Positions 3,636 to 19,232 of a stretch of DNA of 64,000 bases are shown here, piece after piece. The notes beneath the pieces were generated by a model, which had not been told where the DNA came from, searched no databases, and was given only the letters and a program-made list of their open reading frames with translations. The translations under genes were made by a program, and so were the position numbers. Numbering within the stretch: the first letter of the stretch is position 1; each line of letters starts with the position of its first letter. This stretch comes from Gracilariopsis chorda (taxonomy: Eukaryota; Rhodophyta; Florideophyceae; Gracilariales; Gracilariaceae), in contig NBIV01000035.1 in the NCBI GenBank assembly GCA_003194525.1, forward strand, positions 186,001 through 250,000, given 5' to 3'.

Positions 3636-4245
3636 TCCCTGGAGCAGAGAATCTTTGCCTGCAACAGGGTGAGTTCTCTCACGCTGGGTGATATTCACCC
3701 TGCTCTGCGGTTATCAGGAACTCTTATCCGAAGTGCATGGGGGTGGAGAGAAGTTGCAAGGGCGTGTGTGTGCGGCAGATAAATGTCACTACTGTACCCG
3801 TTCCAGCCGGTAATTGTTGCACTGTTCTGGCAATTGGCGCCAATTCTTTAGTTTTGCAGCAGCAGCAGCAGTGACAAATTTCGAAGCTGATTGGCTGCCA
3901 CTTTGCTTGTCTAACCTATTTACGATTGCACGCACGAGTGGCAACCCGTTAAAAACTTAGCAAAGAACACTGGCAGAGAGATTTTGGCGCGCCCTTGTGG
4001 TATGCCGTACGTTGGTGTTCTCGGAATGCTAGATAGAGGTGCTAGATCGCAAGTTTCTTAGGCAAAAGCTCAAAAATACTACGAAAATGATAGATTCTGC
4101 TAGTTTCTAGCACTTGCCAAGTAAAAAAAGAATTTTCTTGGAATTCACACTTCCATATCTTACAGAGCCTTGCCTCACCTGCACTGCGCATCGCTAGTTT
4201 CAAGTTTGGGGGAAGTTCATTCTCCACTAAAAGCTAGATACAGAT

Positions 4246-4486: not shown

Positions 4487-5173
4487 CTAGCCTTCTTCGC
4501 CCTCTTCCCTCTTTCCCTGCCTCCTCTTCAACCGACTCTTAACCTCCAATACTTCTTCGTCCTTCTCTTCCAACTTCCTTTTCACGCCCCCTCTACCTCC
4601 AGGAGTAACCGGAGACCCACTCCCGACAGCACCTCCCACCCCACCTTCCCCTCCACCTCCTTACATCTTGTTCCGCATATCCTCGACTAGATGCACAGCC
4701 CTGTCCACCAGTAAAAGGCGCTTCTCCAACTCCAAAATCCGTCCTCGGAACTCCTCATTCTCCTTCCACAGCCTCCCCAGCTCCTCTCCCACACACGCCA
4801 CAACCCCATCGATGTGCTGCTCTGCCCACACCCCAGCCTCCCTCACCCTCCGGCGCAACTCAGCCACAGCACCCATCGGCACTCCTTCCTCCGACGCACT
4901 CAGAACCATCCCTCCGAACTCCACGACTACCTCCTCAATACACTCATCCAAACGTTCCTTAAGCCCTCCCCCAGCGCTCCTCAATAGTTCCTTCACATTG
5001 CAGTAGAACCCATCCATTCGTCTCCCTCCACCTCCCCCTACCCCTCCTCCTCGACCACCCTCGCCCGCACCTCCCTTCCCACCATCCCCTCCCATCATCG
5101 TCCCAACCCCAAGCTCACTGACCGAAAATTGCGAATAGTAGTCATGGTGCCTGTGGATGTTCTCAAATGACAT
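4487..5173 (-). CDS. Hypothetical coiled-coil protein, two exons
   Basis: The leftward frame opens at an ATG at 5173 and is continuous to 4661. The protein has a glycine-rich segment around residues 28-50, then long charged helices likely to form coiled coil in the C-terminal half. The unspliced frame ends on ATG-TAA, and that very sequence is a good donor (GTAAGG at 4664). Splicing it to an acceptor GTAG at 4593 (72-nt intron 4664-4593) keeps the frame and adds 35 residues of the same charged, Lys/Glu-rich kind before a TAG at 4487-4489. The predicted protein is about 204 aa. No family is recognised. It may be the outermost leftward gene of the accessory block or a separate host gene. The intron is inferred by eye. 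Confidence 0.5.
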
Positions 5174-5178
5174 GAATC

Positions 5179-5241
5179 TTCAAGAGTCGTGAATGAATGT
5201 TCAAGAGTCGTGAATGAATTTTCAAAAGTTGATAATGAATG
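5179..5241. repeat. Tandem repeat, 21 bp x 3
   Basis: Three 21-bp copies start at 5179, 5200 and 5221 (unit TTCAAGAGTCGTGAATGAAT plus one base). The first two are nearly identical and the third is diverged. The array lies just upstream of the leftward coiled-coil gene. Confidence 0.8.
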
Positions 5242-5747
5242 TCCCACCTCTTCACTTGAACCAATTTTGTCACTGCGTAAATGCACAGCTTATCATCTTC
5301 TCATTTGCTCACCCCTTGTCCTTCCCAACACACAAAACAATATTTTGAACCTCTACACGATAATGCCTTCACCCTCTTCACTCTTCTTCATACAACAAGC
5401 ACGCTACAATGCATTCATGTATGAAAAGAACAAATACTCTCTATATCAACAGAATGGACAATCGCGGTATTTGGCTATAACAACGGGATCCTTCACATCC
5501 GTAAAATCACCTTCAATTCTTATACATAATCCCATACTCAATTTTACATCCATTCGTGTTTCATATGAGCTGCCCCTTCATTCTCCCCTCCAATACACCC
5601 ACCCCAAGTTTCTTCCCATACTTGTAGACCTTTCTTTATGGAATATAACACAGCGAAATCTTTGTAGACATTATCCCTTCATTATTACGCATCATTCGAA
5701 TGAAGCCGCATATAAAGTAATCCCCATCATATTAAACCTCTCCCATT

Positions 5748-5839: not shown

Positions 5840-6520
5840 TCAATCGCTTTCATCGTCCTCACCTATCAGACCCTCTGCTCCTTTAGGAACCATTTCACCT
5901 TCATTGTCATCGCCCTGTTCATAATCTCCATCAGTGTTCATTTCCGCTGGTTTCAGTATATTCTCATCGTCCTCCTCATCCGAGGGGTTCTCACCTTCGG
6001 CTTCTTGCATAACTACATCTCTATCGTCAGCTTCATCTCGCCGCTCCTCTTCCCCTCCTCCCACCTCACATAAATCGCCACGGTCCTCTTCATCATTAAT
6101 AAAGGGAGGGCGAAAACCGCTTTGCCTATGCACCGTATCCAGGAGATTGTATCCCTCAGGTACAAAGTACATATGGTATCGCATGCAATAGCCTTTCGCT
6201 ATTGCATCATTGTACCCAGCCCCAGCATGAAATACATCCCTTGTTCCAATGAACACAGAAAACGGTGGAACTCTGAACTTCCGAACCATCATAGAAGCCG
6301 AAAGCTCTTTCAAGCTACCCTGTGTCATTGTTAGAGTATGTGGCCGTTCACAAACCCAAATCATGAACGCATCCGGTCCCGATGCAATTGCAAAATACCC
6401 CGGGTTCACATTTCTCATCCTGTCATTCTCCGTCAAACCCCTGAAATCCGTGTCTAGCACCTGCCTCGGACAATCCTCTCCAGTACAAAGGATACGGCCA
6501 CCCGTGTGAGGGGCATACAT
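5840..6520 (-). CDS. Beta-helix (2OG-Fe(II) dioxygenase-like) protein with acidic tail
   Basis: This leftward ORF of 226 aa starts at an ATG at 6520. Residues about 95-135 carry a VFIGTRDVFHAGAGY segment followed by an RYHMY motif. The pattern His-Ala-Gly then Arg, spaced as here, is typical of the distal iron-binding His and the cosubstrate-binding Arg in phytanoyl-/JBP-like double-stranded beta-helix dioxygenases. A proximal HxD is not obvious; a DTD sits where it would be expected. The last 75 residues are highly acidic. The ORF follows the next one upstream almost without a gap and in the same frame, so the two may be parts of one larger gene. The fold is an inference from motif spacing, and the substrate is unknown. 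Confidence 0.5.
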   Translation of the reverse strand: MYAPHTGGRILCTGEDCPRQVLDTDFRGLTENDRMRNVNPGYFAIASGPDAFMIWVCERPHTLTMTQGSLKELSASMMVRKFRVPPFSVFIGTRDVFHAGAGYNDAIAKGYCMRYHMYFVPEGYNLLDTVHRQSGFRPPFINDEEDRGDLCEVGGGEEERRDEADDRDVVMQEAEGENPSDEEDDENILKPAEMNTDGDYEQGDDNEGEMVPKGAEGLIGEDDESD

Positions 6521-6523
6521 CGT

Positions 6524-7093
6524 TTAACCTTCAGACAACCCGAGAGCCGCTGCAATCTGACCGAGCCTTGCATCCAACATGGCTCTCTTTCGAGCAAGAA
6601 CCGCACCGTTTTCAAGCTCCTCAATTCTGTTCGCAATCCCTCGTTTGGTTGTGATGAAACGCCTCACCGCCTTGATACCATTCTTAACATCCTTTACCCC
6701 TCCTTCATTGATGATCATATTCCAGAAAACACGATTCGCTTTGTTCGTGAGATCCGGTTGCGAAACAAAGTCGCGTTCGAAGAAGTCCATCAGTTCTCCT
6801 ATCACATCTTCGTCCATTTGCAGTCCCCTCTTCGAATCCTCACTCGCCATGCCTCCATCTGTCCCGAAATTCTCCAGCACACAAAACCCTCTCTCCGACC
6901 GCTCCACTCTCTTCTTCGCATAGTAAACACGAGCCAAGTCCTCTCTCTCAAAAGCGGCCATCCATAACGCTTCCTCTTCATTCGATGCCGTTCCTGATGA
7001 CGGCATCTTCATGCCCAGCACTGCACGTGCCGTAGTACCCATCTCTTTGTGCATGTTGCGCGATGCATGCCAGTACACAGCATGACGAACCAT
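6524..7093 (-). CDS. Hypothetical protein, leftward set
   Basis: A 189-aa leftward ORF in the same frame as its neighbours on both sides and closely abutting them. Residues about 85-125 include a GFCVLENF segment followed by a helix with DVIGELMDFFERDF. This resembles the region before the beta-helix in dioxygenases of the phytanoyl-hydroxylase type. The rest is helical and charged. It may be the N-terminal portion of the dioxygenase-like protein next door or a separate small protein. No family is recognised with confidence. Confidence 0.45.
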   Translation of the reverse strand: MVRHAVYWHASRNMHKEMGTTARAVLGMKMPSSGTASNEEEALWMAAFEREDLARVYYAKKRVERSERGFCVLENFGTDGGMASEDSKRGLQMDEDVIGELMDFFERDFVSQPDLTNKANRVFWNMIINEGGVKDVKNGIKAVRRFITTKRGIANRIEELENGAVLARKRAMLDARLGQIAAALGLSEG

Positions 7094-7117
7094 TCGGAAG
7101 TCATCTGGTGATAGGCA

Positions 7118-7942
7118 CTACGCCCGATGGTGCTTCCTCAGATTTATCCTCTGCATCCATGGATGGGAATGCTTCACTGCATTTCCGCTTGCAGGCCACT
7201 CACTGGGCAACGAGTATACCAGGTCCACCCAAGACATGTCCGCTCCCATAGCCAGCTCTCCTGGCGTACGTAAGCCAGCTGGAAGCTTGTCAGGATTCTT
7301 ATCGTCAAAGCTGCCTGCGGTTTGCTGCTCCTTTGCCTCGTCTTCCTCATCATCCACAAAGTCTTCCTGAGCTTCATCCTCGCTTGACTCGAGCACGATG
7401 ATCTCCTGTGCTGTCAAACACGTCTTCAAATCTCTCCTTGCCATACTACGCAGCACCTCCACCACCTCCTGCGAGATACCAAAGCCAAGTCGCTTCACAC
7501 CACGTGCACTCGGCTTACGATTCGATCGTCTCTGTTTCTTCACCAGTGGCTCAAAATCAACTGACTCTTCATCTTCATCTTCGTCCAGCACCTCCACTTT
7601 ACGCTTCTTTGATATTCGCTTACTTCTTCGAGCCTCCTGGTCAGCGTTTGGAAGCTTCTGAGCAGCTTCCTCATTCAGACCAAGCAACTCGATCACGTCC
7701 ACATCGGCCGCAGAGGGAGCAGGAGCAGTAGCATCCTGTCCCTGCATGCCCGAAAAAGCGCTGGACAACATCCTACGAACCTCTTTCACCTTATTAATCA
7801 CTCTGGACTCCAGTGAACTGCGTTTCCCTGTCGTATACCACTTCCCCAGACAAGATATGATATACTTTGACACAGTCTGGTCAGAGTCGCCGATGGTAAC
7901 CGCGGTATTCATCACTTCCTGTACATTCTTTTTCTCCTTCAT
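7118..7942 (-). CDS. Hypothetical basic/acidic chromatin-type protein, leftward set
   Basis: A 274-aa leftward ORF beginning at an ATG at 7942. It has a helical N-terminus, then Lys/Arg-rich clusters (RRSKRISKKRK near residue 105 and a second near 138) that resemble nuclear localisation signals, then strongly acidic Glu/Asp runs. Such alternation is common in nuclear linker or histone-binding regions. It is in frame with the ORFs on both sides and closely spaced, which suggests a compact set or a decayed larger gene. No catalytic domain is seen. Confidence 0.45.
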   Translation of the reverse strand: MKEKKNVQEVMNTAVTIGDSDQTVSKYIISCLGKWYTTGKRSSLESRVINKVKEVRRMLSSAFSGMQGQDATAPAPSAADVDVIELLGLNEEAAQKLPNADQEARRSKRISKKRKVEVLDEDEDEESVDFEPLVKKQRRSNRKPSARGVKRLGFGISQEVVEVLRSMARRDLKTCLTAQEIIVLESSEDEAQEDFVDDEEDEAKEQQTAGSFDDKNPDKLPAGLRTPGELAMGADMSWVDLVYSLPSEWPASGNAVKHSHPWMQRINLRKHHRA

Positions 7943-7996
7943 GGAACTCCCCAGCTCACTGCAAATGTCATACGTTCTAGAAGCGCAGTCGAAGAA

Positions 7997-8320
7997 CTAC
8001 TTTCGGAAATCCTCAAACGGTCCCATCTTCACAGTGGCCGCCGACCTCACTCGAACATGTGCCTGTAGACATTGGATAGTAAAACGAAACTTATCCCCTG
8101 ACATTCCAAGCAGAATATCACTAGACACATGAGTGATTCCAATTTGAGGCGTCTCCTGCCAAACCACATGGAAGAACTCTAACAGACCGGGATTACGCGC
8201 AAACTTCAGAGCAAGAGCAGAATGGCGATTGAAATGACGTATCTTCCCTTCTTTCCCCTTCGTCTCACTGCTCCACAACACCCCCTTTGATTTGGCTTGG
8301 TTTAAGCTTCGAGAACTCAT
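7997..8320 (-). CDS. Hypothetical ORF, leftward set
   Basis: A 107-aa leftward ORF that overlaps the end of the ParB-like ORF by about 55 bases in another frame. It looks like coding sequence but has no motif I can name. Together with its neighbours it suggests that the leftward set is one long gene or gene group that has been interrupted a few times. Confidence that it is an independent gene is low. Confidence 0.3.
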   Translation of the reverse strand: MSSRSLNQAKSKGVLWSSETKGKEGKIRHFNRHSALALKFARNPGLLEFFHVVWQETPQIGITHVSSDILLGMSGDKFRFTIQCLQAHVRVRSAATVKMGPFEDFRK

Positions 8321-9716
8321 ACCAATCCTGCTCTACGCCATTACGAATAAACGAAACAGCAATGTGAATCTTATCTGCGAAAGACATCACCAGAACATTG
8401 GAGCTCAAATCATTCAACATATTCCCCAGCCACAACACCTCATTCAATGTCATTCTCCGGCCGTCGTTCCGTTCCCAAAACGTGACGTTCAAACCAGCAG
8501 TAATCTGTGCCCATCTCGCACCATCCTGCTCGAGGTCCAGTAGAACAATCACTCGATGGAAGCCGTCCACCAAAACCACAGGAACAATCAAATGCCCAGT
8601 CGCATCAATAGCGTCACGAACCGGCACATCCTCCACCAGGGCCACCGCAATCGACCCAAGAGAAGGGAGCCAGCCGAATTTCCTCAGTTTGTTCGAAGTA
8701 TCTCGAAGATGTTTGTCATTCTTCGAACGAACCATGTTCTTCAGAAATCGAATGTTGTGGATATCGATTACGCAATTGTGCTGGTCATAATCATCTCGAT
8801 TGATGTCTAAGGTACCCAAACTGTTATCCACCTCTTCCGAAGGAACAGCATCACCGGCATCATATAAAACCCTCTCCTCCGGATCAAGATCGTTCCTGGA
8901 GAGTACAGGCACCTCTATGACGTCATCATCGGAGCTTGCTCCGACTTCAGGGCCTTCTCGGTTTCCAGAGCCGCCCGCGAGAGCACCTGATGCTCCTCCA
9001 CCGCTCTGACGTGTTTTCACCGGAGCCTCTCCACCGCTCTCAAGGCTCTTCACTGGCGCTTTGGTCACCAAAATGCTTGATGGTGTACCAGCAACAGCGG
9101 GAAGGCGCTTGACTTGTCTTGCATTGGTCCTGGAAGCTGTAATTCTGTGGACAGTCTTCAAATTTGCTCCTGACTGCGGTGGAACCCACTCATTCCCCTC
9201 TCCGCCTTCATTTTTGACACTCATCATCGCAGTGTCCCATGCATATAAACACGCTGAAACCATCTCCTTCAAAGTTGCGGGCGGTTCCTCAGAACCCCCA
9301 AAAACATAAGGGTACTTCTCATCTTGGTGTGACGTAATATTTGTCTTAAAGATAACCACCAAGTCCTCTCCAGGTCTCTGCGTAGAGGAAAGGGGATGGT
9401 TGTATAGAGAACGACAGAGTCTCGTCCCCGGCCCCCCAGCAACCCCCACACCGCGCAATGTCGCCTCTCCTACCTTCACCTTCGCATCACTACTCCCAAA
9501 TCGTACGAACAGATTGACCTCCGCATCACCCTTAAGCACCTGACCCGTATTGCTCCCAATTGATGGCTCAGGGTGGCTGGCAGCTCGGGTGGCGCCCCGG
9601 CTCTTCGCTTTGCCTCGCATGGTCAGCATGTCGATAACACGTCTCTTCGGCGAAACAGGCTTCCTCGGAGTCCGTTTCCGTGATGGCGCGTTTATGTTAT
9701 TCCCAGTGGAATCCAT
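8265..9716 (-). CDS. ParB-like domain protein
   Basis: The frame is open from 9731, but that position is TTG. The first ATG is at 9716, giving 483 aa. The N-terminus is basic and low complexity (PRKPVSPKRR), the middle is Ser/Gly-rich, and the C-terminal third holds a ParB/sulfiredoxin-like core. Residues about 370-410 run through VPVVLVDGFHRVIVL, where DGFHR matches the conserved (D/E)GxxR box of ParB-type nucleotide-binding domains. In phages, plasmids and mobile elements such domains often accompany DNA methyltransferases, and one is encoded about 2 kb away on the other side of the inverted repeat. The role is unknown; DNA binding or CTP/nucleotide binding is plausible. It is the first gene of the leftward set. 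Confidence 0.6.
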   Translation of the reverse strand: MDSTGNNINAPSRKRTPRKPVSPKRRVIDMLTMRGKAKSRGATRAASHPEPSIGSNTGQVLKGDAEVNLFVRFGSSDAKVKVGEATLRGVGVAGGPGTRLCRSLYNHPLSSTQRPGEDLVVIFKTNITSHQDEKYPYVFGGSEEPPATLKEMVSACLYAWDTAMMSVKNEGGEGNEWVPPQSGANLKTVHRITASRTNARQVKRLPAVAGTPSSILVTKAPVKSLESGGEAPVKTRQSGGGASGALAGGSGNREGPEVGASSDDDVIEVPVLSRNDLDPEERVLYDAGDAVPSEEVDNSLGTLDINRDDYDQHNCVIDIHNIRFLKNMVRSKNDKHLRDTSNKLRKFGWLPSLGSIAVALVEDVPVRDAIDATGHLIVPVVLVDGFHRVIVLLDLEQDGARWAQITAGLNVTFWERNDGRRMTLNEVLWLGNMLNDLSSNVLVMSFADKIHIAVSFIRNGVEQDWYEFSKLKPSQIKGGVVEQ

Positions 9717-9931
9717 GTCTGAGTACTTCAAAGGTCGCGCTTGCGTTTTCTTGGCACCCGCTGACGTCGAATGCTCCCGTGATCACGTATGCTTATTCCA
9801 AAGAGATGGACGTAAGCACTATATATCGTTTTCAAGACGTTTCATGACATCCATTGTCGTCAACGTAGCATCCCTGCAATTCCCCTCCCAATTACTTGCA
9901 TTGCAAAAAAAAAATAAACTGATACTTGTTT
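9717..9931. promoter_or_regulatory. Divergent promoter region of the accessory block
   Basis: The interval between the leftward ParB-like start (9716) and the inverted repeat contains an AT-rich stretch with an A-run near 9905 and a CACTATATATCG segment near 9820 that could serve as a TATA-type element. Both gene sets read outward from here, so it is likely the shared control region. No transcription-factor site is identified. Confidence 0.35.
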
Positions 9932-10079
9932 GGTCGAGGGCCATGGTCCGAGGTGTCGCGGTGCTCCATCGCGAACACGATGGAGCGCCAGGCATGAATT
10001 TTAATTAGAATTTCGAGTCCTGGCGCTCCATCATGTTCGCGATGGAGCACCATGACACCTTGGACCACGGTCCTCGACC
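9932..10079. repeat. Large inverted repeat (61-bp arms) between divergent gene sets
   Basis: Arm 9932-9992 and arm 10019-10079 are reverse complements at 55 of 61 positions. All six differences are transitions, and five of them fall on CpG/TpG/CpA pairs. The 26-base spacer (9993-10018) is AT-rich. The right arm ends 46 bases before the ATG at 10125. It could be a cruciform-forming control element, an origin-like site, a small foldback element or a silencing target. Confidence 0.9.
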
Positions 10080-10124
10080 CAAAACGAAGAGAAACATAAT
10101 CCGAAGGAAACAGGTTCATTCAAG

Positions 10125-11159
10125 ATGCACGGAACCGGAGAAGAGCTTATTGATGCTTATCTTGCAGTTCGTGATGACTACGCAGCGACGAGGCAAAATG
10201 TGGATGCGCCGATAAGTTTGAAGCTCAACGACTTTGTGGAGTTCGCCGTACAAAGTCGCAACGTTCATGACTCTGCCAAGAAAATGTTTCTCACTCTCAT
10301 CGGACCGGATTATATCTCGTATTTGGGCTCAAAGCTCCGTAACATGTCTCTCAGAGGCCCTCCACGTCAACTCTATCTTATGGCAAGAGTGGTGGACGTA
10401 AAGGACCGTGAAGAAGACAGGCGTGTAAGGGACTTTTGGAAGGTTTATTGTAAAAGGGAAGGGCTTAAAGGAATTCCCCGTAACGTGTTGCTATCTGTCT
10501 TTTCCAAGTCCCGTGTTCTGGGAGCAACCAAGAAATCTTGCGCTTTCCACACGGATCCTTGCACCGACTTTGAAATGGTCATTGGGTTGTCTATGGTGCA
10601 ACAGATTGCCGTGGATAAGAAAGGAAGTGGTAGGAAGAGGAAAAGGGGCATGGAAGCTAAGAAGTTCTCGAAAGTGAGTTTGTCGGACATGACCCAGAGT
10701 CAGAGAGTCGGGTATGGTGTGCAGCTGGTGACCAGGGCTTGGGATTGTTTCGCCCAATTCCTCGGGTTTCCCAAGGTTGAGGTTATGATCTTGCCTTACA
10801 TTCGACTCGACAATATCAGTGTAGTCTCCACCGATATCGCACAACGCTCCATGGGCTTCCAACACAAAGATTGTTCCAAACAGTTTGCGGAGGAGAAGAA
10901 CGTCACCACCCTAGAAGAAAACGTTACCAAATGGGCATGGAATCTGCCGGACCCAGTGGATACAGCGCTTCGCCTTTGTGCCAAAGAATACCTTTGTGAC
11001 CTTTCTAATGTGGTGGTACAAGAGAAACTGTTCGACATCTCTGCTCCCAGCAATTGGGATGCCCTTAAAAGGTTCATCATCACGAGAACGAGACTTTTCC
11101 CTCTGCGGTTTGAGAACTTTGGTGAATCTCTTGTCCCTATGGTTCAAGAGGCCATATAG
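10125..11159 (+). CDS. Hypothetical protein, first of the rightward set
   Basis: A 344-aa ORF starting at an ATG 46 bases after the inverted repeat. The N-terminal 100 residues are helical. Near residue 140 is an AFHTDPCTDF segment whose HxD could be a metal site, followed by hydrophobic strands (EMVIGLSMVQQIAV) and a basic KKGSGRKRKRG cluster near residue 165. A GFQHKDC segment lies near residue 248. The HxD and later His could hint at a second beta-helix oxygenase, but no Arg-anchored motif follows, so no family is assigned. It is followed at once by the DNA-methyltransferase frame. Confidence 0.5.
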   Translation: MHGTGEELIDAYLAVRDDYAATRQNVDAPISLKLNDFVEFAVQSRNVHDSAKKMFLTLIGPDYISYLGSKLRNMSLRGPPRQLYLMARVVDVKDREEDRRVRDFWKVYCKREGLKGIPRNVLLSVFSKSRVLGATKKSCAFHTDPCTDFEMVIGLSMVQQIAVDKKGSGRKRKRGMEAKKFSKVSLSDMTQSQRVGYGVQLVTRAWDCFAQFLGFPKVEVMILPYIRLDNISVVSTDIAQRSMGFQHKDCSKQFAEEKNVTTLEENVTKWAWNLPDPVDTALRLCAKEYLCDLSNVVVQEKLFDISAPSNWDALKRFIITRTRLFPLRFENFGESLVPMVQEAI

Positions 11160-11179
11160 AGCCTCTGAAGCTCATTGCA

Positions 11180-12691
11180 TTGCATGGAAGCAATGTCAAA
11201 GTACATCAAGCTGTGAAACCAGAGCCCGCAGAAGACGTTGACATCATTATGGGGCCAGTAGAAACTGGTACGGCTGGTGGTGGGAACGAACGTGCTGAGC
11301 GTGTGGAAGGTGGTGATCAGGGTGAGTTGGAAGAAGTGGAAGAGATAGAGATGGTAGAGGATGCAGAACGTGGTACTGCGGAACGTGGTACTGCACCAAA
11401 GGCCACTGAAGGACTGCAAACAATAGCTTTGTCGCAGAACTTATCGTATGATGTCGAAGGCACGGGGATTCGTGCACCACCGTACCCTACGACTTTGGAT
11501 GATGTGATAGCTTACAAGTATTGTGAGAAGGAGATGTCCCGCAACTTCCGTCTCCACAACTGCAAGTTCGAAAACCTCATCGAAGTTGACGACAACAAGT
11601 CTGGCGAAAGCGAGGTATCTATTGAAGGAAGGGTACAGTTCCTGCTTTCCGATCCGCCATATGGGACTCGTTCTGAGTGTCGTTTGGAGAACAGCGAACA
11701 CGATATTCTGACAGAGAAGGGCATGAGCAGGTCAGCGAGGAGGTCGTCAAAGCTTCTACGTCCTGGTGGACATATTATACAGTTCTGCTCATGGGATCAG
11801 GTACCGTTGTGGCGGGATGTGCTACGGAACGTTACCTACATGGATGACTCTGATACGATGCGTTACTCCTTTGTCGTCGACGAACAACCCCTCCATTTCG
11901 TACGGTCTTTAGGTAATACGACGGGTAACGTTGGGAGAAGAAGTTGCCGGTTGCACCAGACGACAGAATACGCTGTACATGCTGTTCGTTCTGGAGTTCC
12001 TTATGCACAACAGCACCAGATGGTCAACTATGAGAACTTCTATTATGTTGCTTCACGATACCCAGCGTATCATGCAATCATGGATCAGGTGCCACCGATG
12101 TCAAATAGTGAGATGCTCATGTGGTCTGTGAAAAACCCGGATGGGAAGTATACGAGGAAGAGCGTGCGACCGGAACAGAAGAGTAGGGCACTGTTGAAAA
12201 AGCTGATTTGCAGCTTCAGTCAGCCAGGAGACCTCGTGGTCGACATGTTTGCCGGAACGTTCTCGACAGCGATGGCGTGCATGGAACTGCCCAAGCATCG
12301 GAAGTATTTGGGGTGTGAACCGGACAAAGCTTGCTTTGAACACGCCAGGCATGGCGCTATTGTTCGCTTCGCTTCCATAATACGGGAAGGATACACTGAT
12401 ATTGAGAAGAGCCAGGAGCTTCGAAAGATGGCCCATTGTATTTCCTCTGCATTCCCAATGGGAAGAAGCAGGCACACCGTGTTATGGAGGGCTGTCGACG
12501 GATTTCCACCGTACCAACTTCTTCCCCCACACCTTGTCGACTTTCTCTCCACTTTGTGGCAAATTGAAATTCTAGGGAAGTTGGGAAGGAAGAAAGCTAT
12601 GGATGGATGGCCGAAGGAGGTGCAGGGAAGAATGAATCTGGAGAACATGAAGTCTCTATTGGCAATGGAGGCTGTGCAATATGGGTTGTGA
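11180..12691 (+). CDS. Beta-class amino DNA methyltransferase (N6-adenine/N4-cytosine type)
   Basis: The open frame gives 503 codons from 11180; the first in-frame ATG is at about residue 24. After an acidic N-terminus, residues about 155-165 show the catalytic motif IV (SDPPYGT), and residues about 350-380 show the AdoMet-binding motif I (DLVVDMFAGTFSTA) followed by an acidic motif II region (LGCEPDKACFEHA). Motif IV ahead of motif I is the order of beta-class amino methyltransferases (N6_N4_Mtase family), which are common in bacteria and phages and rare in eukaryotes. DPPY favours N6-adenine, though N4-cytosine cannot be excluded. Both key motifs look complete. The SET-domain frame follows directly in the same reading frame. 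Confidence 0.75.
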   Translation: MHGSNVKVHQAVKPEPAEDVDIIMGPVETGTAGGGNERAERVEGGDQGELEEVEEIEMVEDAERGTAERGTAPKATEGLQTIALSQNLSYDVEGTGIRAPPYPTTLDDVIAYKYCEKEMSRNFRLHNCKFENLIEVDDNKSGESEVSIEGRVQFLLSDPPYGTRSECRLENSEHDILTEKGMSRSARRSSKLLRPGGHIIQFCSWDQVPLWRDVLRNVTYMDDSDTMRYSFVVDEQPLHFVRSLGNTTGNVGRRSCRLHQTTEYAVHAVRSGVPYAQQHQMVNYENFYYVASRYPAYHAIMDQVPPMSNSEMLMWSVKNPDGKYTRKSVRPEQKSRALLKKLICSFSQPGDLVVDMFAGTFSTAMACMELPKHRKYLGCEPDKACFEHARHGAIVRFASIIREGYTDIEKSQELRKMAHCISSAFPMGRSRHTVLWRAVDGFPPYQLLPPHLVDFLSTLWQIEILGKLGRKKAMDGWPKEVQGRMNLENMKSLLAMEAVQYGL

Positions 12692-13279
12692 GTGGGCAAG
12701 TCTACTATTCGTCACGAAAAGGCTGGTGTTGGAGTGTTTGCAACACGTCGAATTGCTGCAGGCGAGGTAGTGTGCTATTTCTACGGGACGTTGGTTTATC
12801 ATGACCTTTCGAATCGGAAAGAAGTGCACAAGACCTACGGGGAAAGAGTCATGGGTGTGACGAAGGATCGCTTCCGGAAGTATGCGGTGGAGATAGAAGT
12901 CTACGGTCAACAGTTCCAATCACTTCCTCATCGAAAACAGCTGACGAATTGGCATGGAAAACAAGCAAACCCCATTTTATGGGTGGTTCCTGCCCTTTTT
13001 TGTATTGCGGGGTATATCAACGATTCAAAGTACGTGGAAGGAGATAAACAGTTAGATGCCATGGTGAATGGCCTCCTGAAAAAAAGGGAGGCTAATGTGC
13101 GAATGAAACGGACACCGGGAGTGGGACGAACACCAGGGGGAATAACGGACTACAAACTTATTAAGATGGAGGCGACAGCCAACATAGAGCAAGGAGAGGT
13201 ACTCTTCGCCAGATACGGTGATGTTTATGACTGGCAAACCCATTTGAATGTGGAGGATGGAATGATAGTCATTGATTAG
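12692..13279 (+). CDS. SET-domain (lysine methyltransferase-type) protein
   Basis: About 195 codons are open directly after the DNA-methyltransferase frame and in the same register; the frame begins without a nearby ATG. It opens with AGVGVFATRRIAAGEVVCYF, the standard start of a SET domain (G-x-G-x-F/A, then I-x-x-G-E). In the second half, AGYINDSKY occupies the place of the R-x-x-N-H-S motif, although the match is only partial. A C-terminal ANIEQGEVLFARYGDVYDW matches the E-x-x-x-x-Y-G/D-Y end of SET domains. SET enzymes methylate lysines on histones or other proteins. Closeness to the methyltransferase suggests a former two-part protein or co-expressed pair. Confidence 0.7.
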   Translation: MGKSTIRHEKAGVGVFATRRIAAGEVVCYFYGTLVYHDLSNRKEVHKTYGERVMGVTKDRFRKYAVEIEVYGQQFQSLPHRKQLTNWHGKQANPILWVVPALFCIAGYINDSKYVEGDKQLDAMVNGLLKKREANVRMKRTPGVGRTPGGITDYKLIKMEATANIEQGEVLFARYGDVYDWQTHLNVEDGMIVID

Positions 13280-13576
13280 TTTGTTGTTATAAACCTTTGT
13301 CCACAGCTTGGCTAAAGGGCGAAGCTTATTATTTGAACGGATGTGTAGTCCTAACTTAGGAGAACATCACTTTTCGGTAAGGATAGAAGATACAAAGCGA
13401 TATAGATGTGACACAGAAACGTCCATTTTCGGTACCACGGAGGATTGTATTCTCAAGATTTCACTAAAAACAAAGATTTTTGTGCGCATTGGGTGGCGAG
13501 AGTTTCCCGGACAACACACGGCGTGCGCCATCCCAGAGCGTCACTAGCCACTTGCGCAAGATGTTTGACTCCAAGA
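13280..13576. other. Gap between SET and coiled-coil ORFs
   Basis: About 300 bases with no supported gene or repeat. A frame open at 13308-13547 has no domain and is probably chance. Confidence 0.5.
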
Positions 13577-14122
13577 ATGGCGCCAAAGGGAAAGAAGCGA
13601 GGCCCGGCAAGGGGTGGTGCGGCGAGTGCGCCTAAGACGCGGCAAAAGGCTATTGAGGAGCGAACCGCGAGTGAAAGCAAAGCGAAATCATGTGTTCCCA
13701 GGAGCGGATTATCGGGGAGGAGGTCAGGAGAAGGTGCTTCGAAAAGGGGGGGAAAAGGTGGGGCAAAGAACGTCGGATCCGAGCGCACGACGAGTGAGAA
13801 TTTGAAGGCTGATGCCCATGCGCATGTAGCAGGCGGGAGACATTCGGTTCGAGGACAGCGATCTATGCCTGGGTCTGGTGGTGGGTTGGAGGGTAAGAAA
13901 GGGTCGGTTGCTAGGAGAAGGGAAGAGGTACCAGATCAGGGAGGGTTGAAAGCAAATGCGCGGGTCGAAGACCGAAATAAAGATGAAGAATTGCCGGAAA
14001 GGAAACAAATGGAAGAGGCAGTTGCGCTGAAGAGAGGTGCGGCCCCAAGGGGAAATCAATATGGAGGAGAGGTAAATGTCTCTTGGAACACAGTGATGGG
14101 GATGACGAGGATCACATTGTGA
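13577..14122 (+). CDS. Hypothetical basic, low-complexity protein
   Basis: An ORF of 181 codons from the ATG at 13577 (MAPKGKKRGPARGG). It is rich in Lys, Arg, Gly and Ser throughout, like a disordered DNA- or RNA-binding tail. No domain is seen. It overlaps the start of the next frame by about 40 bases and may be the N-terminal part of the coiled-coil protein that follows. Confidence 0.4.
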   Translation: MAPKGKKRGPARGGAASAPKTRQKAIEERTASESKAKSCVPRSGLSGRRSGEGASKRGGKGGAKNVGSERTTSENLKADAHAHVAGGRHSVRGQRSMPGSGGGLEGKKGSVARRREEVPDQGGLKANARVEDRNKDEELPERKQMEEAVALKRGAAPRGNQYGGEVNVSWNTVMGMTRITL

Positions 14123-14361
14123 AGGAGAGATGTACGAGAGATATGATAAACGAAGGAGTGGGACGCCGCTCTAATTTAAAGGAAACGCGAGAAGTGGAAG
14201 AAGTGGTCAGAGCGACGGATGGAATACTGGAAGCATCGAAAAGCGGAGACCGTACAAGCACACTCGTGCAGACGCGAAAGGTGCAAATGGCTGAAAACTT
14301 GGATAGTGATAGAGGAAGCAGAACGCCGCAGACTCTGGAAGGCATGCGAGAGAGAAAATGA
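14083..14361 (+). CDS. Hypothetical short ORF, possibly part of the following coiled-coil protein
   Basis: A 92-codon charged ORF in the same frame as the ORF at 14452, less than 100 bases downstream. Composition (Glu, Lys, Arg, Thr) matches its neighbours. No domain. It is probably a segment of one longer gene covering about 13.6-16.0 kb. Confidence 0.3.
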   Translation: MEHSDGDDEDHIVKERCTRDMINEGVGRRSNLKETREVEEVVRATDGILEASKSGDRTSTLVQTRKVQMAENLDSDRGSRTPQTLEGMRERK

Positions 14362-14451
14362 ATTGTTCATCGGTCGCCAAGTGAACCTGCTGACGAGCAA
14401 AGCCTGCCTGTAAATATTCTGGGAGATGCAGGGAATGACGACATTGGTGTG

Positions 14452-15438
14452 ATGTCTCGATCTTCGTTAGTTGAGAGGGTCAATATGTTGAAGGCAGAAC
14501 TCGGGCAGATCAAAGGGGACCACTGCAGCCTAAAGATGTCGCTGAAGCTGACGCAAGAGGAACTGAAGAGGATGAGAGAAGAGATGAGCGAGAAGAATCT
14601 GCTGATAGATACCTTACGGGAAGGGATGAAGGTGAGACGAAGGGAGAGAAAGGGATCTGAAGGTAAAAAGGAATTGCGAGGGCGTAGGAAGTATGTGGTT
14701 GATGTGCAAGAGGGTTTTTATGGGTTTGCCAGGGTAGTATATGATAGGTTGTTGTACTATGCGAAGGTGGAGGTATCGGAGCTTTGTTTTACTTCGGAGG
14801 GTGTGGAAAGGAACTGGACGAATCGATGCGAAGTATTGGGGAAGGGAAAAGAGGGGAGTGTGTTTGTTGTGGGAGGAAAGGAGATTGTACCTCGATGTCC
14901 GTTTGAGATTGCGTCTGAGATGAGGTCATATACGCCTTCGTCGCGAGGAGGAAGTAATGAACTATTGAAGTACTTGGTTGGCGTTGAGATTGAGTGGGAG
15001 AGATGGGAGTCGATTTGTGAAGCGGGTAGGAAGGATCAATGCGTGCGGGAGGTTGTTGCGGACAGGTGTTTGAGGCAACGTATGAAGCAGAAGTTGAGTG
15101 ATGTGATTGGGGTTCGGAAGCGTGCGGCACGGGACAAAATGTTTTCGTTGCTTGGATATGACTTGATAGCCAGACGTATGAGACCGCGAGAGGGGACAGA
15201 GCTAGACATTGAGTGGAAGAAGCAGTTAGAGGAAGCAAAGACGAAATTCAAGGGGGATGGGGAGGCGAAGAGCGGTAGTTTATGTTCTTGGAGGATGAAA
15301 ACAATCGAAGATCTTACGTATTCTGGATTTCAGGTTGCTGGGCGGCTGAGAGAGTTTAGTGAAGGGGACATGTACTACAAGAACGGGGCTGCGGTGGAAG
15401 TGTTGGAAGAATTCATGGGATATGAGGTGGGAACGTAA
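14452..15438 (+). CDS. Hypothetical coiled-coil protein, rightward set
   Basis: The frame is open from 14449 (GTG); the ATG at 14452 is a better start, giving about 328 aa. Residues about 6-60 form a clear heptad-rich coiled coil (LVERVNMLKAELGQIKG). The remainder is a mixed alpha/beta region with conserved-looking aromatic and charged positions, but no family I recognise. It is followed directly by another ORF in the same frame. Possible roles are a structural or DNA-binding accessory protein of the mobile block. Confidence 0.5.
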   Translation: MSRSSLVERVNMLKAELGQIKGDHCSLKMSLKLTQEELKRMREEMSEKNLLIDTLREGMKVRRRERKGSEGKKELRGRRKYVVDVQEGFYGFARVVYDRLLYYAKVEVSELCFTSEGVERNWTNRCEVLGKGKEGSVFVVGGKEIVPRCPFEIASEMRSYTPSSRGGSNELLKYLVGVEIEWERWESICEAGRKDQCVREVVADRCLRQRMKQKLSDVIGVRKRAARDKMFSLLGYDLIARRMRPREGTELDIEWKKQLEEAKTKFKGDGEAKSGSLCSWRMKTIEDLTYSGFQVAGRLREFSEGDMYYKNGAAVEVLEEFMGYEVGT

Positions 15439-15978
15439 ATGGAGGGAAAGATGGAGTACGTTGATGGGACAGTGATGCATTTGGCTCGTTTGGATGCGTG
15501 GATCAGATGTGTTTTGACGGCAATGCACACAGATGTGGGGCGTGGAGGAAGACGGCAGTTGTTATTTTCTACATTGTACGGTGAGTATCTTCCGCTCGCG
15601 GTAGAGAATATAATTGGTGTGGCGTGGGAGAGGGTGAGAGAGCTACATCATAAAGAATTGGAGAATGAAGGTTGCGATGAGGGTGACCCGCGTTGTATAG
15701 CTGGCAATGGGGATAGAGAAGTGACGGTAGCGCTGTGGATACCTTCGAAGCGGAGGATATACTTGGCCGTGAAGGACGAATACTTTTTGGAACATATGAC
15801 GAAACGGCTGGGAGGGGTGCTGGACTGTTATGTTGCTGCGTGTCGGCCAGAAGATGTGTGGATGAAGAGGTTGGTGAAAGAGAGTCGAGATGTTGGGAGA
15901 GGTGAGGCGACGGATCATGTCGAGGCGCAGTGGGAGGAAGGTCTGGGAGGTTATGAAGAACAAGTTGAAGAAGAATAG
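15439..15978 (+). CDS. Hypothetical protein, last of the rightward set
   Basis: A 179-aa ORF whose ATG touches the stop of the preceding ORF, in the same frame. It is helical, with an acidic C-terminus (EEGLGGYEEQVEEE). No domain is recognised. It ends 22 bases from the end of the convergent transposase frame, which marks this as one compact block. Confidence 0.45.
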   Translation: MEGKMEYVDGTVMHLARLDAWIRCVLTAMHTDVGRGGRRQLLFSTLYGEYLPLAVENIIGVAWERVRELHHKELENEGCDEGDPRCIAGNGDREVTVALWIPSKRRIYLAVKDEYFLEHMTKRLGGVLDCYVAACRPEDVWMKRLVKESRDVGRGEATDHVEAQWEEGLGGYEEQVEEE

Positions 15979-16000
15979 TGTTACTGGTGGAACGGGTGGT

Positions 16001-17340
16001 TTACTGATGTGTTGTAGATTGTCGGGCGTAAGGCTTTGAAGAGGTGTCACGATAGAATCGGTTGATGTAGAAACGATGGAAGCGCCAGTGAAGACGAGGA
16101 GTGAATGGCGGGGCGGGGTAGTCTTCTCGAATGACGTGGACTGCACCTAGAATGGAGGTGGAAGGAATGAGGCCGAACCAAGGAGATACGTTGTCGTCGG
16201 TGGAAGGTTTGGAGATGGGAACTGGATCGGTGGTGTGGTCCCGCTCGTCATCGGTTGAACACCGAAGGCAGACGCAGTTGAGGGTGATATCGACATTTTC
16301 GCGGGGTGGTACGAGTTCAAGGAATTGTACGAAAGCGAATTCCTTTGTAATGGGGGTGGAAGAGCTTGAAGAGGGGGAAGGTAGTTTGAAGCGAACTAGG
16401 GCAATGAGCTTGGAGACCCATACAGTGGGTGTGGATGGAGAGGAGGAGTTGGTTCCTGCGACAAGGATATGGGAGAACTTTGGTGATCTGGAAAGTCCGA
16501 ATGATGGAACGGCGAAGATGCGCTGGAGGAGAGGGACGGAGGGTTCTTGGAGGACGAGTTCGTTTCGTTCTTGGTTGTAATTGTGTAGTGTTGGGATGTA
16601 ACCGCCGACGACGTATGCGGAGTTGACGAAGGTGAGACGAGTTTGACGGAGGTTGTTGGGTGAGGGATTTAGCTTGAGATATTCGATGGAAAGGGAGACA
16701 AAGGAATGAAGTGTGGTGGGATCTAGTTGTGAGATGATGGAGAGCGTGTCTGGGGAGAAGAGTTCTTGAAGAAATTTTGGACTTGCGTTGGGGGTGGATG
16801 CAAGGTACTTTGCGGCTGTGAAGATGTCGTAGAAGGAAAGATGTGTTCCGTCACGTACGAAGAAGGGTTTGCGTGGTTGCGGTTGAGTTTGAGGTCGAGC
16901 ATAGGACGATAGGGAATTGTCTGCGGAAAGTTAATTCCAGTCTTTGAAGAGATTGAAGCGGTCTATAGCACGGATGGTTTCTTCATAGGCGGTGGCTCTT
17001 CGCTTGGAAGTTTTGGAGTAATGTGATTTGAAGAGGACGTGGGCGTGCTCGAAGATGCCTGCGTCGTTGAAGCGGAGACCCCCGTATCGGCGTATGTCTT
17101 CGACGATGTGGTCGGGGAGATGGAACTTGAGGGTGCCGAGGTGCGAGGAGTGGCAGGGTCCGAGAATGGATGCGGCTGTGACTTTGAAGGATCTGATGTG
17201 TTTTTCGAGAGATAGGAGGGAGGTGTCTGTCCATTCGGGGGACGAGTTGTATCGCATAGCGGAGAGAAGGAGGTCTGTGTATTTGGTGAAGACAGAAGTG
17301 ATGGGGGAGGAGTCGGTTTCTTTGCAGCATCTGTCGAAGA
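16001..17340 (-). pseudogene. DNA-transposase C-terminal remnant (KDZ/Plavaka-like style)
   Basis: The leftward frame is open from the G-rich repeat to 16931 and then, after one in-frame TAA (16931-16933), for 309 further codons to a stop at 16001-16003. The second part has no ATG. The first part carries a FHLPDHIVEDIRRYGGLRF segment followed by FEHAHVLFKSHYSKTSKRR; the second ends with IPSTSILGAVHVI and LHWRFHRFYINRFY. Such strings recall the C-terminal half of large DNA-transposon transposases (KDZ/Plavaka type) of algae, oomycetes and fungi. A 51-nt GT...CAG segment covering the TAA (ATTAAC branch-like motif, TTTCCGCAG end) keeps the frame, so the TAA may lie in an intron. The catalytic N-terminal half is missing. 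The family assignment is from memory of motif style. Confidence 0.55.
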
Positions 17341-17745
17341 AGGGGGGGAGGGGGAGGGGCAAAGGCGAAAGCTGCGAGGGGGGGTTGTGTTTGTATGCCG
17401 GAAGCCTGTGTCCACGGGGGAAAGGGCGGGGGGGGGCAAGGCCAGTCGAAAGGCGGCAGCCGCGGGGAGTGTTCAATGGCTGAAGCCGCGGGGGGGGATG
17501 CGGCGGCCAAAGGCGGAAGTGGCAGGGGGGGAGGAGAAGCCGGTCCAAAGGTGGCAGCCGCAGGAGGGGGGGGCGGCGGCCGAAGGCGGAAGCCGCAGAG
17601 AGGGGGGAGGAGAAGCCGGTCCAAAGGTGGCAGCCACGTGGGGAAGGCGGCGGCCGAAGGCGGAAGCTGCAGGGGGGAGGAGAAGAAGCTGGTCCAAAGT
17701 TGGCAGCCGCGTAAGGGGGGGCGGCGGCCGAAGGCGGGAGCGGTA
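17340..17745. repeat. GC-rich minisatellite at the head of the transposase frame
   Basis: The top strand is extremely G-rich. It contains repeated blocks of about 70-77 bp sharing GGTCCAAAGGTGGCAGCC and GGCGGCCGAAGGCGGAAGC cores, separated by G-runs of 6-9. Block cores lie near 17545, 17622 and 17693, with diverged copies before them. Read leftward it stays open and encodes a Pro/Ala/Leu-rich repeat, so it can pass for coding sequence. It replaces the expected N-terminal half of the transposase. Confidence 0.75.
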
Positions 17746-17761
17746 AATGCAGAGCACGCAA

Positions 17762-19232
17762 GGCGCGCTTAGAGCCCGGCTAGAGAAGCCGGGCGTTCCG
17801 TGAGAAGTGCGAGGAGCTTTTCTTTGCTCCTAGGTTGGTGCAGTTAAACAATGATTGATTCAGCGTCCCTGAACGGTAACTCTTCTTGCATGTGCGGTTG
17901 CTGCGGCGGCCGCTGTCTACTTAAAGATATTGTTATCGATAACGAATATTATATAATCGCTCTCAGGCTTTTCGTATGCCCGCAGCGATGCTACTATGTA
18001 GTGGTTGTCGCTTCCCATTTTTCATTCTCCTTGAGGGAGTGAGAACGTTGAGTTTATTTATACTATCTCCATGAGGCTAGTTTGTGAACTTTGTGGCTCG
18101 TTCCAATGAGCGATTACAGTCAGTGTATTCACAACCCGACTGGATATCAATCGTTACTCACGAGACTCATGACTCGCGTGAGTCACGTAATAAGAGGACT
18201 GCCTTACAATTATACTATTGCTACTTTACATGTGTGGCTGTAAGCCGTACTTGCGTCGGCCCTCTTGTTCGAACAGGAGCTTCCAGACCGTTTCGGTAGT
18301 TAGAATAATTAGACTAGCTACTGAATCGTATCGGAATCTACTTTTCATGAACAAGATAGTCGAAGTAGAAGATTAGCAGTAAAGGGAAACACGGTTGTCC
18401 GTATCCGGCTGCGTACAGAGGCTGTTGTCAGCTCTGGTCTTCTAAGTCTACTCTATCTTCTAACGTTCTAGTATCTTGCAGCCGCTTGGATATTACCGAT
18501 CACGGATTGCGCTTACCGCCGTGCCAACGCAAAAGAGCCCGTCATCGAAGAGATCGTCAGCTACTTACGGTCCTGGTACATCATTGGTGAACCAAACGCT
18601 CTCAAGTGCCAAAGCAACCACATGTGCAGTGTAACCAGCCCCGCCATTGACAACCTTTGAAGATTTCGTTTAATGTAGGGAGCAAGGTTGTTGCTTCCTA
18701 CATTAAACGAATGTTGAACGTAGGAAGAATACACTTACAGTTGCATTCAGTCAAAAACTAGCTTCCACCCGACAAAACAAAATGACAAATCTTGCAGATT
18801 TCGTCCTTAACCTTGTTTGGACGTTGGCATGGTGCAAGGGTGGCCGTAACGGTACTGAATTGTCTCTGAGAGGGTATGGGGCTGGCGTTAAGAAAAAACT
18901 CATAGAATGAAGCCTTGGGTGAAAGCTTGAAGTTGACTGCGTAACTTTACATCCGTTAAAATTTGGAAACTCATAGAACGGCCCTCAGGGCCATGTATTA
19001 CATGGCCTGTAGCACCATTGGCCGGCTAGATAGATCCTATCTAACCCTTATCTTCTATGTAGACCACAATACTTCGAGCTCTCCCGCATAACAGCCGACA
19101 AATAAGATAACATCTCAGTACCCTTAGGTACTTCCAACTCGACAAAACTCCGCAGTGCTAGCAGAAAGTTATAAACTTTTCAAATCTATCTTGCACGACC
19201 TTCGACAGTCACCGACGATAAAGGCCGTCACA
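17762..19232. other. Gene-poor stretch with small hairpins
   Basis: No protein gene is supported. Near its left edge, GCCCGGCTAGAGAAGCCGGGC and AGGAGC...GCTCCT form two small hairpins, possibly the outer end of the mobile block. A partly palindromic ACTCACGAG...GTGAGT segment lies at about 18.15 kb. A 21-bp-arm hairpin at 18665-18711 is listed separately. The last 100 bases are the 5' flank of the methyltransferase gene. Confidence 0.55.
18665..18711. repeat. 21-bp-arm hairpin with 5-base loop
   Basis: Arm 18665-18685 (TTCGTTTAATGTAGGGAGCAA) pairs with 18691-18711 at 20 of 21 positions, around a GGTTG loop. It is short for a miRNA precursor but tight enough to be a small-RNA source, or it may be a footprint of a foldback element. 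No promoter or poly-T context points to an RNA polymerase III gene. Confidence 0.75.

What the first reader, a model, noticed from the sequence alone, without database searches (positions are those of the whole stretch)
5840..16000. Undescribed divergent accessory cassette: ParB-like, beta-helix oxygenase-like, DNA methyltransferase and SET proteins
Two outward-reading gene sets flank an inverted repeat. Leftward: ParB-like, chromatin-type linker, beta-helix (dioxygenase-like). Rightward: unknown, beta-class amino DNA methyltransferase, SET, coiled-coil proteins. Writers of DNA and histone marks and a possible oxidase sit together in one non-housekeeping block beside a transposase. Known eukaryotic transposons sometimes carry DNA methyltransferases or TET/JBP oxygenases, but I know of no family with this set. 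About four or five interruptions suggest partial decay. No capsid or envelope gene is visible.
Basis: partly seen in the sequence, partly recalled or inferred. Interest (0 to 1): 0.88.

Follow-up and report, generated by a model that had tools for sequence, protein, structure and literature searches.

The report
Jumping gene carrying epigenetic enzyme kit
The block is a worn-out copy of a large, repeatedly copied jumping gene that carries its own DNA-methylating enzyme fused to a histone-methylating-type domain, plus an oxygenase fused to a bacterial-style DNA-partition domain, a combination we could not find described and that may let the element control how the host marks it.

Summary
The block is a decayed copy (window 4010 to about 17,780) of a large terminal-inverted-repeat DNA transposon with a Plavaka-type transposase. 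Its methyltransferase has 85 matches (about 83 places) in its own 91-Mb genome. Copies of ~8 kb, 99.5-99.7% identical, sit at unrelated sites with 2-bp target duplications, so the family moved recently. Leftward: a ~1,400-aa protein with ParB-like and 2-oxoglutarate/Fe(II)-oxygenase folds. Rightward: a 1,065-aa CcrM-like DNA amino-methyltransferase-SET fusion. A coiled-coil protein, a membrane protein and a convergent transposase complete the set. Twelve ORF pieces show purifying selection between lineages (dN/dS 0.11-0.36); nine methyltransferase copies of the window's clade evolve neutrally. Diverged relatives keep much of the plan. Long palindromes lie between the divergent genes; their sequence is family-specific, in one family mostly two or three at 75-bp spacing. 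My best mechanism, inferred: the ParB-oxygenase protein recognises these palindromes and, with the methyltransferase-SET protein, rewrites chromatin on the element to escape silencing. A new variant of epigenetically armed DNA transposons.

The parts
4010..4032 (+). left terminal inverted repeat, CGTTGGTGTTCTCGGAATGCTAG, one mismatch to CGTCGGTGTTYTCGGAATGCTAG; the dinucleotide just outside is TA
   Evidence: 239 genome hits to the TIR with up to 2 mismatches against 1 for the reversed control
4491..5695 (-). remains of the small Gly-rich/coiled protein (276 aa in other copies) joined by an internal deletion at about 5115/5116 to the start of the membrane protein (417 aa elsewhere)
   Evidence: alignment to the C31 copy: window 4491-5116 matches 2-616, 5115-5174 matches 2156-2215, 5225-5695 matches 2220-2710
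5840..6523 (-). C-terminal part of the left protein: core of the 2OG-Fe(II) oxygenase domain and acidic tail; proximal His replaced by Asp
   Evidence: dN/dS 0.139 against the C204 copy
6524..7117 (-). left protein, N-terminal part of the oxygenase domain (RGFCVLENF...), separated from the core by a stop
   Evidence: dN/dS 0.112
7118..7996 (-). left protein, middle, variable basic/acidic linker
   Evidence: dN/dS 0.175
7997..8332 (-). left protein, middle helical segment
   Evidence: dN/dS 0.164
8265..9782 (-). left protein, N-terminal part with the ParB-like domain (VDGFHR motif)
   Evidence: 94 matches in the genome, split pieces included; invariant D-G-x-x-R in 10 sequences; Foldseek ParB rows 7bnk, 6sdk for a homologue; dN/dS 0.236
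9929..10082 (.). central inverted repeat (64-nt arms, 26-nt spacer), probably a degenerate form of the palindromes found at this place in other copies (inferred)
10056..11159 (+). right protein, N-terminal helical region of unknown function
   Evidence: aligns with the C48 and C31 copies; part of the 1065-aa ORF in C53 and of the conserved family in A1
11126..12691 (+). right protein, beta-class DNA amino-methyltransferase (DPPY, then FAGTFST)
12692..13279 (+). right protein, SET domain
   Evidence: PF00856 E 8.4e-6; best solved relative KMT2C, E 0.0037; dN/dS 0.166
13412..15978 (+). three pieces (13412-14122, 14362-15438, 15439-15978) of the coiled-coil protein, 821-aa ORF in C53
   Evidence: dN/dS 0.359, 0.166, 0.116
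16001..17341 (-). C-terminal remains of the Plavaka-type transposase; the part matched by PF18759 is lost in this copy
   Evidence: alignment of 14435-17341 to C31 12155-15043; PF18759 E 2.7e-21 in the C31 copy; window contig not among the PF18759 hits
17339..17754 (+). G-rich tandem repeats where other copies have the transposase N-terminal part; no right TIR found in the window with up to six mismatches

Best explanation
SHOWN: a decayed copy of a large (at least 17.5 kb in the longest copy read) TIR DNA transposon of the Plavaka-related kind, whose relatives carry a recurring set of chromatin-type proteins: a ParB-like/2OG-Fe(II) oxygenase protein, a CcrM-like DNA amino-methyltransferase-SET fusion, a membrane protein and, in the first family, a coiled-coil protein. 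Between the divergent oxygenase and methyltransferase genes lie long, family-specific palindromes. INFERRED MECHANISM: the transposase cuts and pastes by the TIRs. The ParB-like part of the left protein recognises the palindromes as a parS-like self-address and brings the oxygenase there, to remove or alter repressive methyl marks on DNA or protein. The methyltransferase-SET protein writes a DNA amino-methyl mark (m6A, possibly 4mC) and a protein-lysine mark in their place. The net effect would be to keep the element expressed and movable against host silencing, or to keep copies told apart from host DNA.
Against: ParB rests on a modest-confidence model (mean pLDDT 64.7) and two Foldseek rows; sequence profiles gave no ParB or oxygenase hit. 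No binding, methylation or expression data. Substrates unknown: the oxygenase fold matches small-molecule hydroxylases, not DNA demethylases, in the rows shown. In the SET domain N-H-S is replaced by N-D or N-E in most sequences (the usual motif is recalled), and P0005 and P0010 lose the final Tyr region. The two second-family copies read (C12, C228) show no left-protein and no coiled-coil ORF of 300 aa or more in the stretches read, their membrane protein reads in the other orientation, and their methyltransferase has DAPY in place of DPPY. 43 of 114 Plavaka matches have no methyltransferase match nearby. The first 1417-aa search found no relative of the left protein.
Confidence: 0.72

Rival explanations
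1. Same transposon, but the palindromes are ordinary bidirectional promoter or operator sites (for an element protein or a host factor) and the ParB-like part is a nuclease or a plain fold without self-recognition. The enzymes act generally in the nucleus.
For: The palindromes sit between divergent genes; ParB-like folds are also used by nucleases and sulfiredoxins (recalled); no binding data; C12 and C228 have palindromes but no left-protein ORF of 300 aa or more in the stretch read.
Against: Family-specific sequence with kept palindromic form and 74-75-bp phasing looks like arrayed binding of one symmetric protein, and the candidate of that type known in the element is the left protein.
Confidence: 0.33
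2. The cargo is self-marking rather than anti-silencing: the methyltransferase labels element DNA for the transposase or for copy-number control, as some prokaryotic elements do (recalled), and the oxygenase undoes it.
For: The methyltransferase is of the CcrM/HpyAVI kind and convergent with the transposase in all 71 linked cases.
Against: Does not by itself account for the SET domain.
Confidence: 0.25
3. An endogenous large DNA virus or virus-like element that borrowed a transposase.
For: ParB-like and DNA methyltransferase genes are common in phages and giant viruses (recalled); [quoted passage not shown] Sub-threshold viral names turned up: SU10 capsid PF17236 at E 0.16, 11.9 bits against a cut-off of 24.1, and a tail tape-measure family at E 0.14; both look like chance.
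Against: No viral hallmark domain above its cut-off in the 15 ORFs scanned; exact TIRs with 2-bp duplications; the viral collection gave 39 loci that match only the methyltransferase part, 24-49% identical.
Confidence: 0.05
4. Chance neighbourhood of unrelated host genes near repeats.
For: None found.
Against: Recurring set, TIRs and linkage.
Confidence: 0.01

Closest known systems
Plavaka DNA transposons of fungi, including those with a TET/JBP dioxygenase (Kojima 2025, PMC12730594; passages read)
   Same: Plavaka transposase (PF18759), TIRs, 2-bp target duplications, an oxygenase carried inside the element
   Different: Termini are CGTCGG..CCGACG, not TGT..ACA or CATCA..TGATG; the oxygenase is of the KanJ fold type fused to a ParB-like domain; carries a DNA amino-methyltransferase-SET fusion, membrane and coiled-coil proteins, and palindromes
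HarbingerS and MuDR transposons of Phytophthora with SET genes (known to me through passages of PMC12730594)
   Same: A DNA transposon carrying a SET domain protein
   Different: Other transposase; a fusion of SET to a DNA methyltransferase is not mentioned in the passages seen
SETMAR/Metnase (listing and abstract starts seen)
   Same: A SET domain joined to transposon sequence
   Different: A primate host gene made of SET and a mariner transposase, not element cargo
DNMT-carrying retrotransposons of dinoflagellates and charophytes (de Mendoza 2018, PMC5890265; outline and abstract read)
   Same: A mobile element carrying a DNA methyltransferase
   Different: Retrotransposon, C5-cytosine enzymes, host-derived; here an amino-methyltransferase of bacterial/phage type in a DNA transposon
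Bdelloid rotifer N4-cytosine methyltransferase (PDB 8s9m; biology recalled)
   Different: Host gene with a chromodomain (recalled), not fused to SET
Bacterial ParB-parS
   Same: ParB-like fold beside palindromic sites
   Different: Fused to an oxygenase in a eukaryotic element; palindromes of about 26-94 bp; ParA not looked for; CTP and DNA binding untested

Membership tests
Plavaka transposons | Plavaka transposase domain | tested here: met
   PF18759 E 2.7e-21, 76.6 bits against cut-off 26.3, residues 321-614 of the 1160-aa ORF of C31; not in the window copy itself, which lost that part
Plavaka transposons | 2-bp (A) or 2-3-bp (B) target site duplication | tested here: met
   cg, ag, ta, at in 4 of 4 copies read at both ends; feature from PMC12730594
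Plavaka transposons | Termini TGT..ACA (PlavakaA) or CATCA..TGATG (PlavakaB) | tested here: not met
   Termini are CGTCGG..CCGACG, so it belongs to neither fungal subgroup; I call it Plavaka-related by its transposase
[quoted passage not shown]
   CPRC and HLLDH are present by eye in the ORFs; their place relative to the catalytic residues was not tested
Beta-class DNA amino-methyltransferase | Motif IV (DPPY) before motif I (FxGxG-like), CcrM-type fold | tested here: met
SET domain methyltransferase | SET domain with cofactor and catalytic motifs | tested here: inconclusive
   PF00856 above cut-off in the window and in 5 of 9 relatives scanned, below it in P0001 and P0004, absent in P0005 and P0010; N-H-S replaced by N-D or N-E in most
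2OG-Fe(II) dioxygenase | HxD...H metal triad and Arg on a double-stranded beta-helix | tested here: met
TET/JBP dioxygenase | TET/JBP-type sequence or fold | tested here: inconclusive
   No Pfam match; not among the rows shown, which does not exclude it
ParB | ParB N-terminal nucleotide-binding fold followed by helical DNA-binding part | tested here: inconclusive
   Foldseek 7bnk_B E 2.1e-4 and 6sdk_A E 3.7e-4, both prob 1.00, but rmsd about 16 and no sequence-profile hit
ParB | CTP-dependent loading at parS | not testable with these tools
   Needs protein; palindromes beside the gene are only suggestive

The most novel reading that the evidence does not exclude
A eukaryotic DNA transposon lineage runs its own sequence-addressed epigenetic control: a ParB-like protein fused to a 2OG oxygenase loads at family-specific palindromes (its own parS) and spreads over the element, erasing or altering marks, while a divergently read DNA amino-methyltransferase-SET fusion rewrites DNA and histones in one polypeptide. 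This would be a ParB-parS-like targeting system used for chromatin rather than partition, and an element-borne writer coupling DNA amino-methylation and protein-lysine methylation.
Probability: 0.38. Interest if true: 0.95.

Novelty: new variant of a known kind. Interest (0 to 1): 0.86.

Why it matters
How transposons carry tools against silencing is, as far as I know, studied mainly for C5-methylcytosine systems. Here an element family that moved recently in its host carries a DNA amino-methyltransferase fused to a SET domain and an oxygenase fused to a ParB-like domain. It offers a direct test of whether bacterial-type DNA amino-methylation works as an epigenetic mark in this eukaryote. It also asks whether a ParB-like self-recognition system can target chromatin enzymes. 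Relatives of both proteins in the public protein set suggest they occur beyond this genome; their hosts are not known to me.

Tried and rejected
Sequence searches for the left protein: Pfam, PHROGs and solved-structure sequences gave no ParB or oxygenase. The first search with the whole 1417-aa ORF found no relative; a search limited to the oxygenase part did. A profile of the ParB-like part against 3,288 ORFs of 39 viral contigs gave three hits at E 1.1-2, hardly better than shuffled sequence at 3.2. Viral contigs searched with the MTase-SET alignment: 39 loci, matching only the methyltransferase part. Phage records with the window's methyltransferase ORF: 8. The coiled-coil protein could not be counted in the genome. 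dN/dS between the first and second family could not be used for MTase-SET (synonymous sites saturated); for the transposase it was 0.31 at dS 1.43.

Considered and rejected: chance neighbourhood (refuted by copies); virus (no viral hallmark domain above cut-off; see rivals); host genes lying near a transposon (linkage, purifying selection, conservation in a second family). Literature: ten searches showed no paper describing a transposon with a DNA amino-methyltransferase-SET fusion or a ParB-like oxygenase; apart from the three papers I opened I saw listings only. The library holds only open-licence papers, so this is weak evidence of absence.

In one search the neighbouring genes were picked by hand, the 61 second-family palindrome places come from the first 100 of 122 rows, and 50 of 51 first-family sites were listed and typed. 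One search uses the 100 listed of 239 TIR hits.
Full report
WHAT IS THERE. The six-frame view of the window shows the reported blocks: leftward ORFs between 5840 and 9782, rightward ORFs between 10056 and 15978, and a 64-nt inverted repeat between them (9929-9992 / 10019-10082). GC skew is strongly negative from about 4,000 and positive to about 18,000, changing sign near 10,000, which already suggested a unit longer than the reported one. Of 10 ORFs scanned, Pfam finds the DNA methyltransferase (PF01555, E 5.8e-17) and SET (PF00856, E 8.4e-6) above cut-off and nothing else above it. By sequence, the nearest solved structures are M1.HpyAVI for the methyltransferase (E 1.6e-8) and KMT2C for SET (E 0.0037).

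IT IS A REPEATED ELEMENT. The window lies in a 91.3-Mb assembly (C35:186001-250000). The methyltransferase ORF has 85 matches there (about 83 places after joining two split copies, the window included) and the ParB-region ORF 94, some of them pieces of one copy; only the best candidates are scored. Comparing copies gave the ends. Three copies (C144, C64, C12) are 99.5-99.7% identical over about 7,987 bp at unrelated flanks. They begin with CGTCGGTGTTCTCGGAATGCTAG, end with the inverted form (one base differs), and are flanked by 2-bp duplications cg, ag and ta; C53, 11,851 bp long, has at/at. The TIR with up to two mismatches occurs 239 times, against 1 for the reversed pattern. Among the 100 hits listed, 22 form inverted pairs 5.6-11.9 kb apart, and every pair has one C-type and one T-type end. 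The window copy has the left TIR at 4010 and no right TIR within six mismatches. The family therefore moved recently. The shorter forms look like internal-deletion derivatives of longer ones; C31 runs 17.5 kb from its right TIR to the contig end.

THE GENES. Left: one 1417-aa ORF in C204. Right: one 1065-aa MTase-SET ORF in C53, then an 821-aa coiled-coil ORF. At the far right, reading back, is a 1160-aa ORF with the Plavaka transposase domain, E 2.7e-21. At the left end are a 276-aa and a 417-aa ORF; the latter has five hydrophobic segments, as does its second-family relative, the MTase-SET ORF as control none. The membrane protein has 107 matches in the genome, many 98-99% identical. The window copy keeps only about the last 445 residues of the transposase (my arithmetic); the region with PF18759 is gone and the window contig is not among the PF18759 hits.

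THE CARGO IS PART OF THE ELEMENT. Of 114 PF18759 matches in the genome, 110 over the cut-off, 71 have a PF01555 match within 10 kb; all 71 are convergent and none is in another orientation, with about 3% expected from density (149 of 150 methyltransferase rows used). The other 43 have none nearby; I did not sort these. A second, far diverged family (C12:166500-182000 and C228:1500-15500) has transposase 49%, MTase-SET 32% and membrane protein 33% identical to the first. Against a strict conservation of the whole plan: in the stretches read of these two copies I see no left-protein and no coiled-coil ORF of 300 aa or more, the membrane protein reads in the same direction as the methyltransferase, and the methyltransferase has DAPY. 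The oxygenase part of the left protein has 151 matches by the tool's count, many at 31-55% identity. Nonsynonymous to synonymous ratios (NG86) between the window's lineage and the young lineage are 0.20 (MTase) and 0.17 (SET), and 0.24 (ParB part), 0.16 and 0.18 (middle), 0.11 and 0.14 (oxygenase), 0.36, 0.17 and 0.12 (coiled-coil), 0.18 and 0.34 (transposase remains; the second piece runs into repeats). Synonymous distances are 0.74-1.79, so the values are rough. Nine stop-free methyltransferase copies of the window's clade, not counting the window's own, give a median of 1.01 (range 0.59-2.01) over 36 pairs at median dS 0.057; the window's own against one of them gave 0.77. The genes were under selection while the lineage was active, and this clade has since decayed.

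THE CENTRAL REPEAT. In C204 two palindromes, 86 bp (perfect) and 94 bp (94%), lie 145 bp apart between the divergent genes, and together form an inverted repeat of 91-nt arms; C48 has the same plan with a shorter first palindrome of 52 bp. In the second family (C12) the sequence looks unrelated but palindromes lie upstream of the methyltransferase too. The core of the first family occurs at 51 sites, none for the reversed control; the 50 listed include seven pairs 235-236 bp apart. The core of the second family has 63 hits on one strand and 59 on the other, 0 controls. The 61 places typed from the first 100 rows form 24 clusters: 15 of three, 7 of two, 2 single. 34 of 37 gaps are 74-75 bp. With neighbours picked by hand clusters have both an outward-reading methyltransferase and oxygenase match, 7 the methyltransferase only, 8 the oxygenase only, 1 neither; distances are 2.1-2.6 kb and 3.1-4.4 kb. 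Form and phasing are kept while sequence is replaced, which is what a site read by a symmetric, co-evolving protein would show.

MECHANISM. Shown: gene content, repeats, recent movement, selection, folds at the stated strength. Inferred: the ParB-like part reads the palindromes; the oxygenase acts on a repressive mark there; the MTase-SET protein writes other marks; together they keep the element from being silenced or tell self from host. The membrane and coiled-coil proteins have no assigned role. The chief rival keeps everything except the reading of the palindromes by the left protein.

COMPARISON. Kojima 2025 (PMC12730594, passages) describes fungal Plavaka with TET/JBP, 2-3-bp duplications and termini that differ from these, and mentions SET genes in HarbingerS and MuDR of Phytophthora. 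De Mendoza 2018 (PMC5890265, outline and abstract) describes C5 methyltransferases in retrotransposons. [quoted passage not shown] What I saw of these does not describe this set.

AFTER CHECKING. Mended against the calls: counts of places, the source calls of two dN/dS values, the second family's missing ORFs, the cluster breakdown and the sub-threshold viral names.

Noticed in passing
window 165-3060: Decayed Copia-like LTR retrotransposon coding remains (integrase-like, reverse transcriptase-like and RNase H-like ORFs, named by eye) just left of the element.
   Followed up: no
window 19128-20129: ORF with a small-molecule SAM methyltransferase look (by eye), the first likely host gene right of the element.
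   Followed up: no
G000 C35:123686, C35:155167 and the window copy at C35:197126: Three copies of the decayed clade lie within about 75 kb of one contig; the other two are 96% and 95% identical to the window's methyltransferase, perhaps local duplication rather than transposition.
   Followed up: no
G000 C32:225625-232348 and C32:324930-331653: Two elements of equal length (6,724 bp) 99,305 bp apart with palindrome and methyltransferase at the same offset: segmental duplication or assembly artefact.
   Followed up: no
L045:7219-10000 continuing in L046 (C12:173718-176729), and L047 (C228): The second family's methyltransferase reads DAPY instead of DPPY in both copies seen, so its activity may be lost or changed although its reading frame is long.
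   Followed up: partly
L033 and L034 (C144:51464-71463): A 1,342-bp direct repeat, 99.5% identical, 2.5 kb from start to start in the flank of the C144 copy, like a young LTR element.
   Followed up: no
L052 (IMGVR_UViG_3300032132_000001): A 395-kb viral contig with a methyltransferase 45% identical over 68 residues to the family.
   Followed up: no
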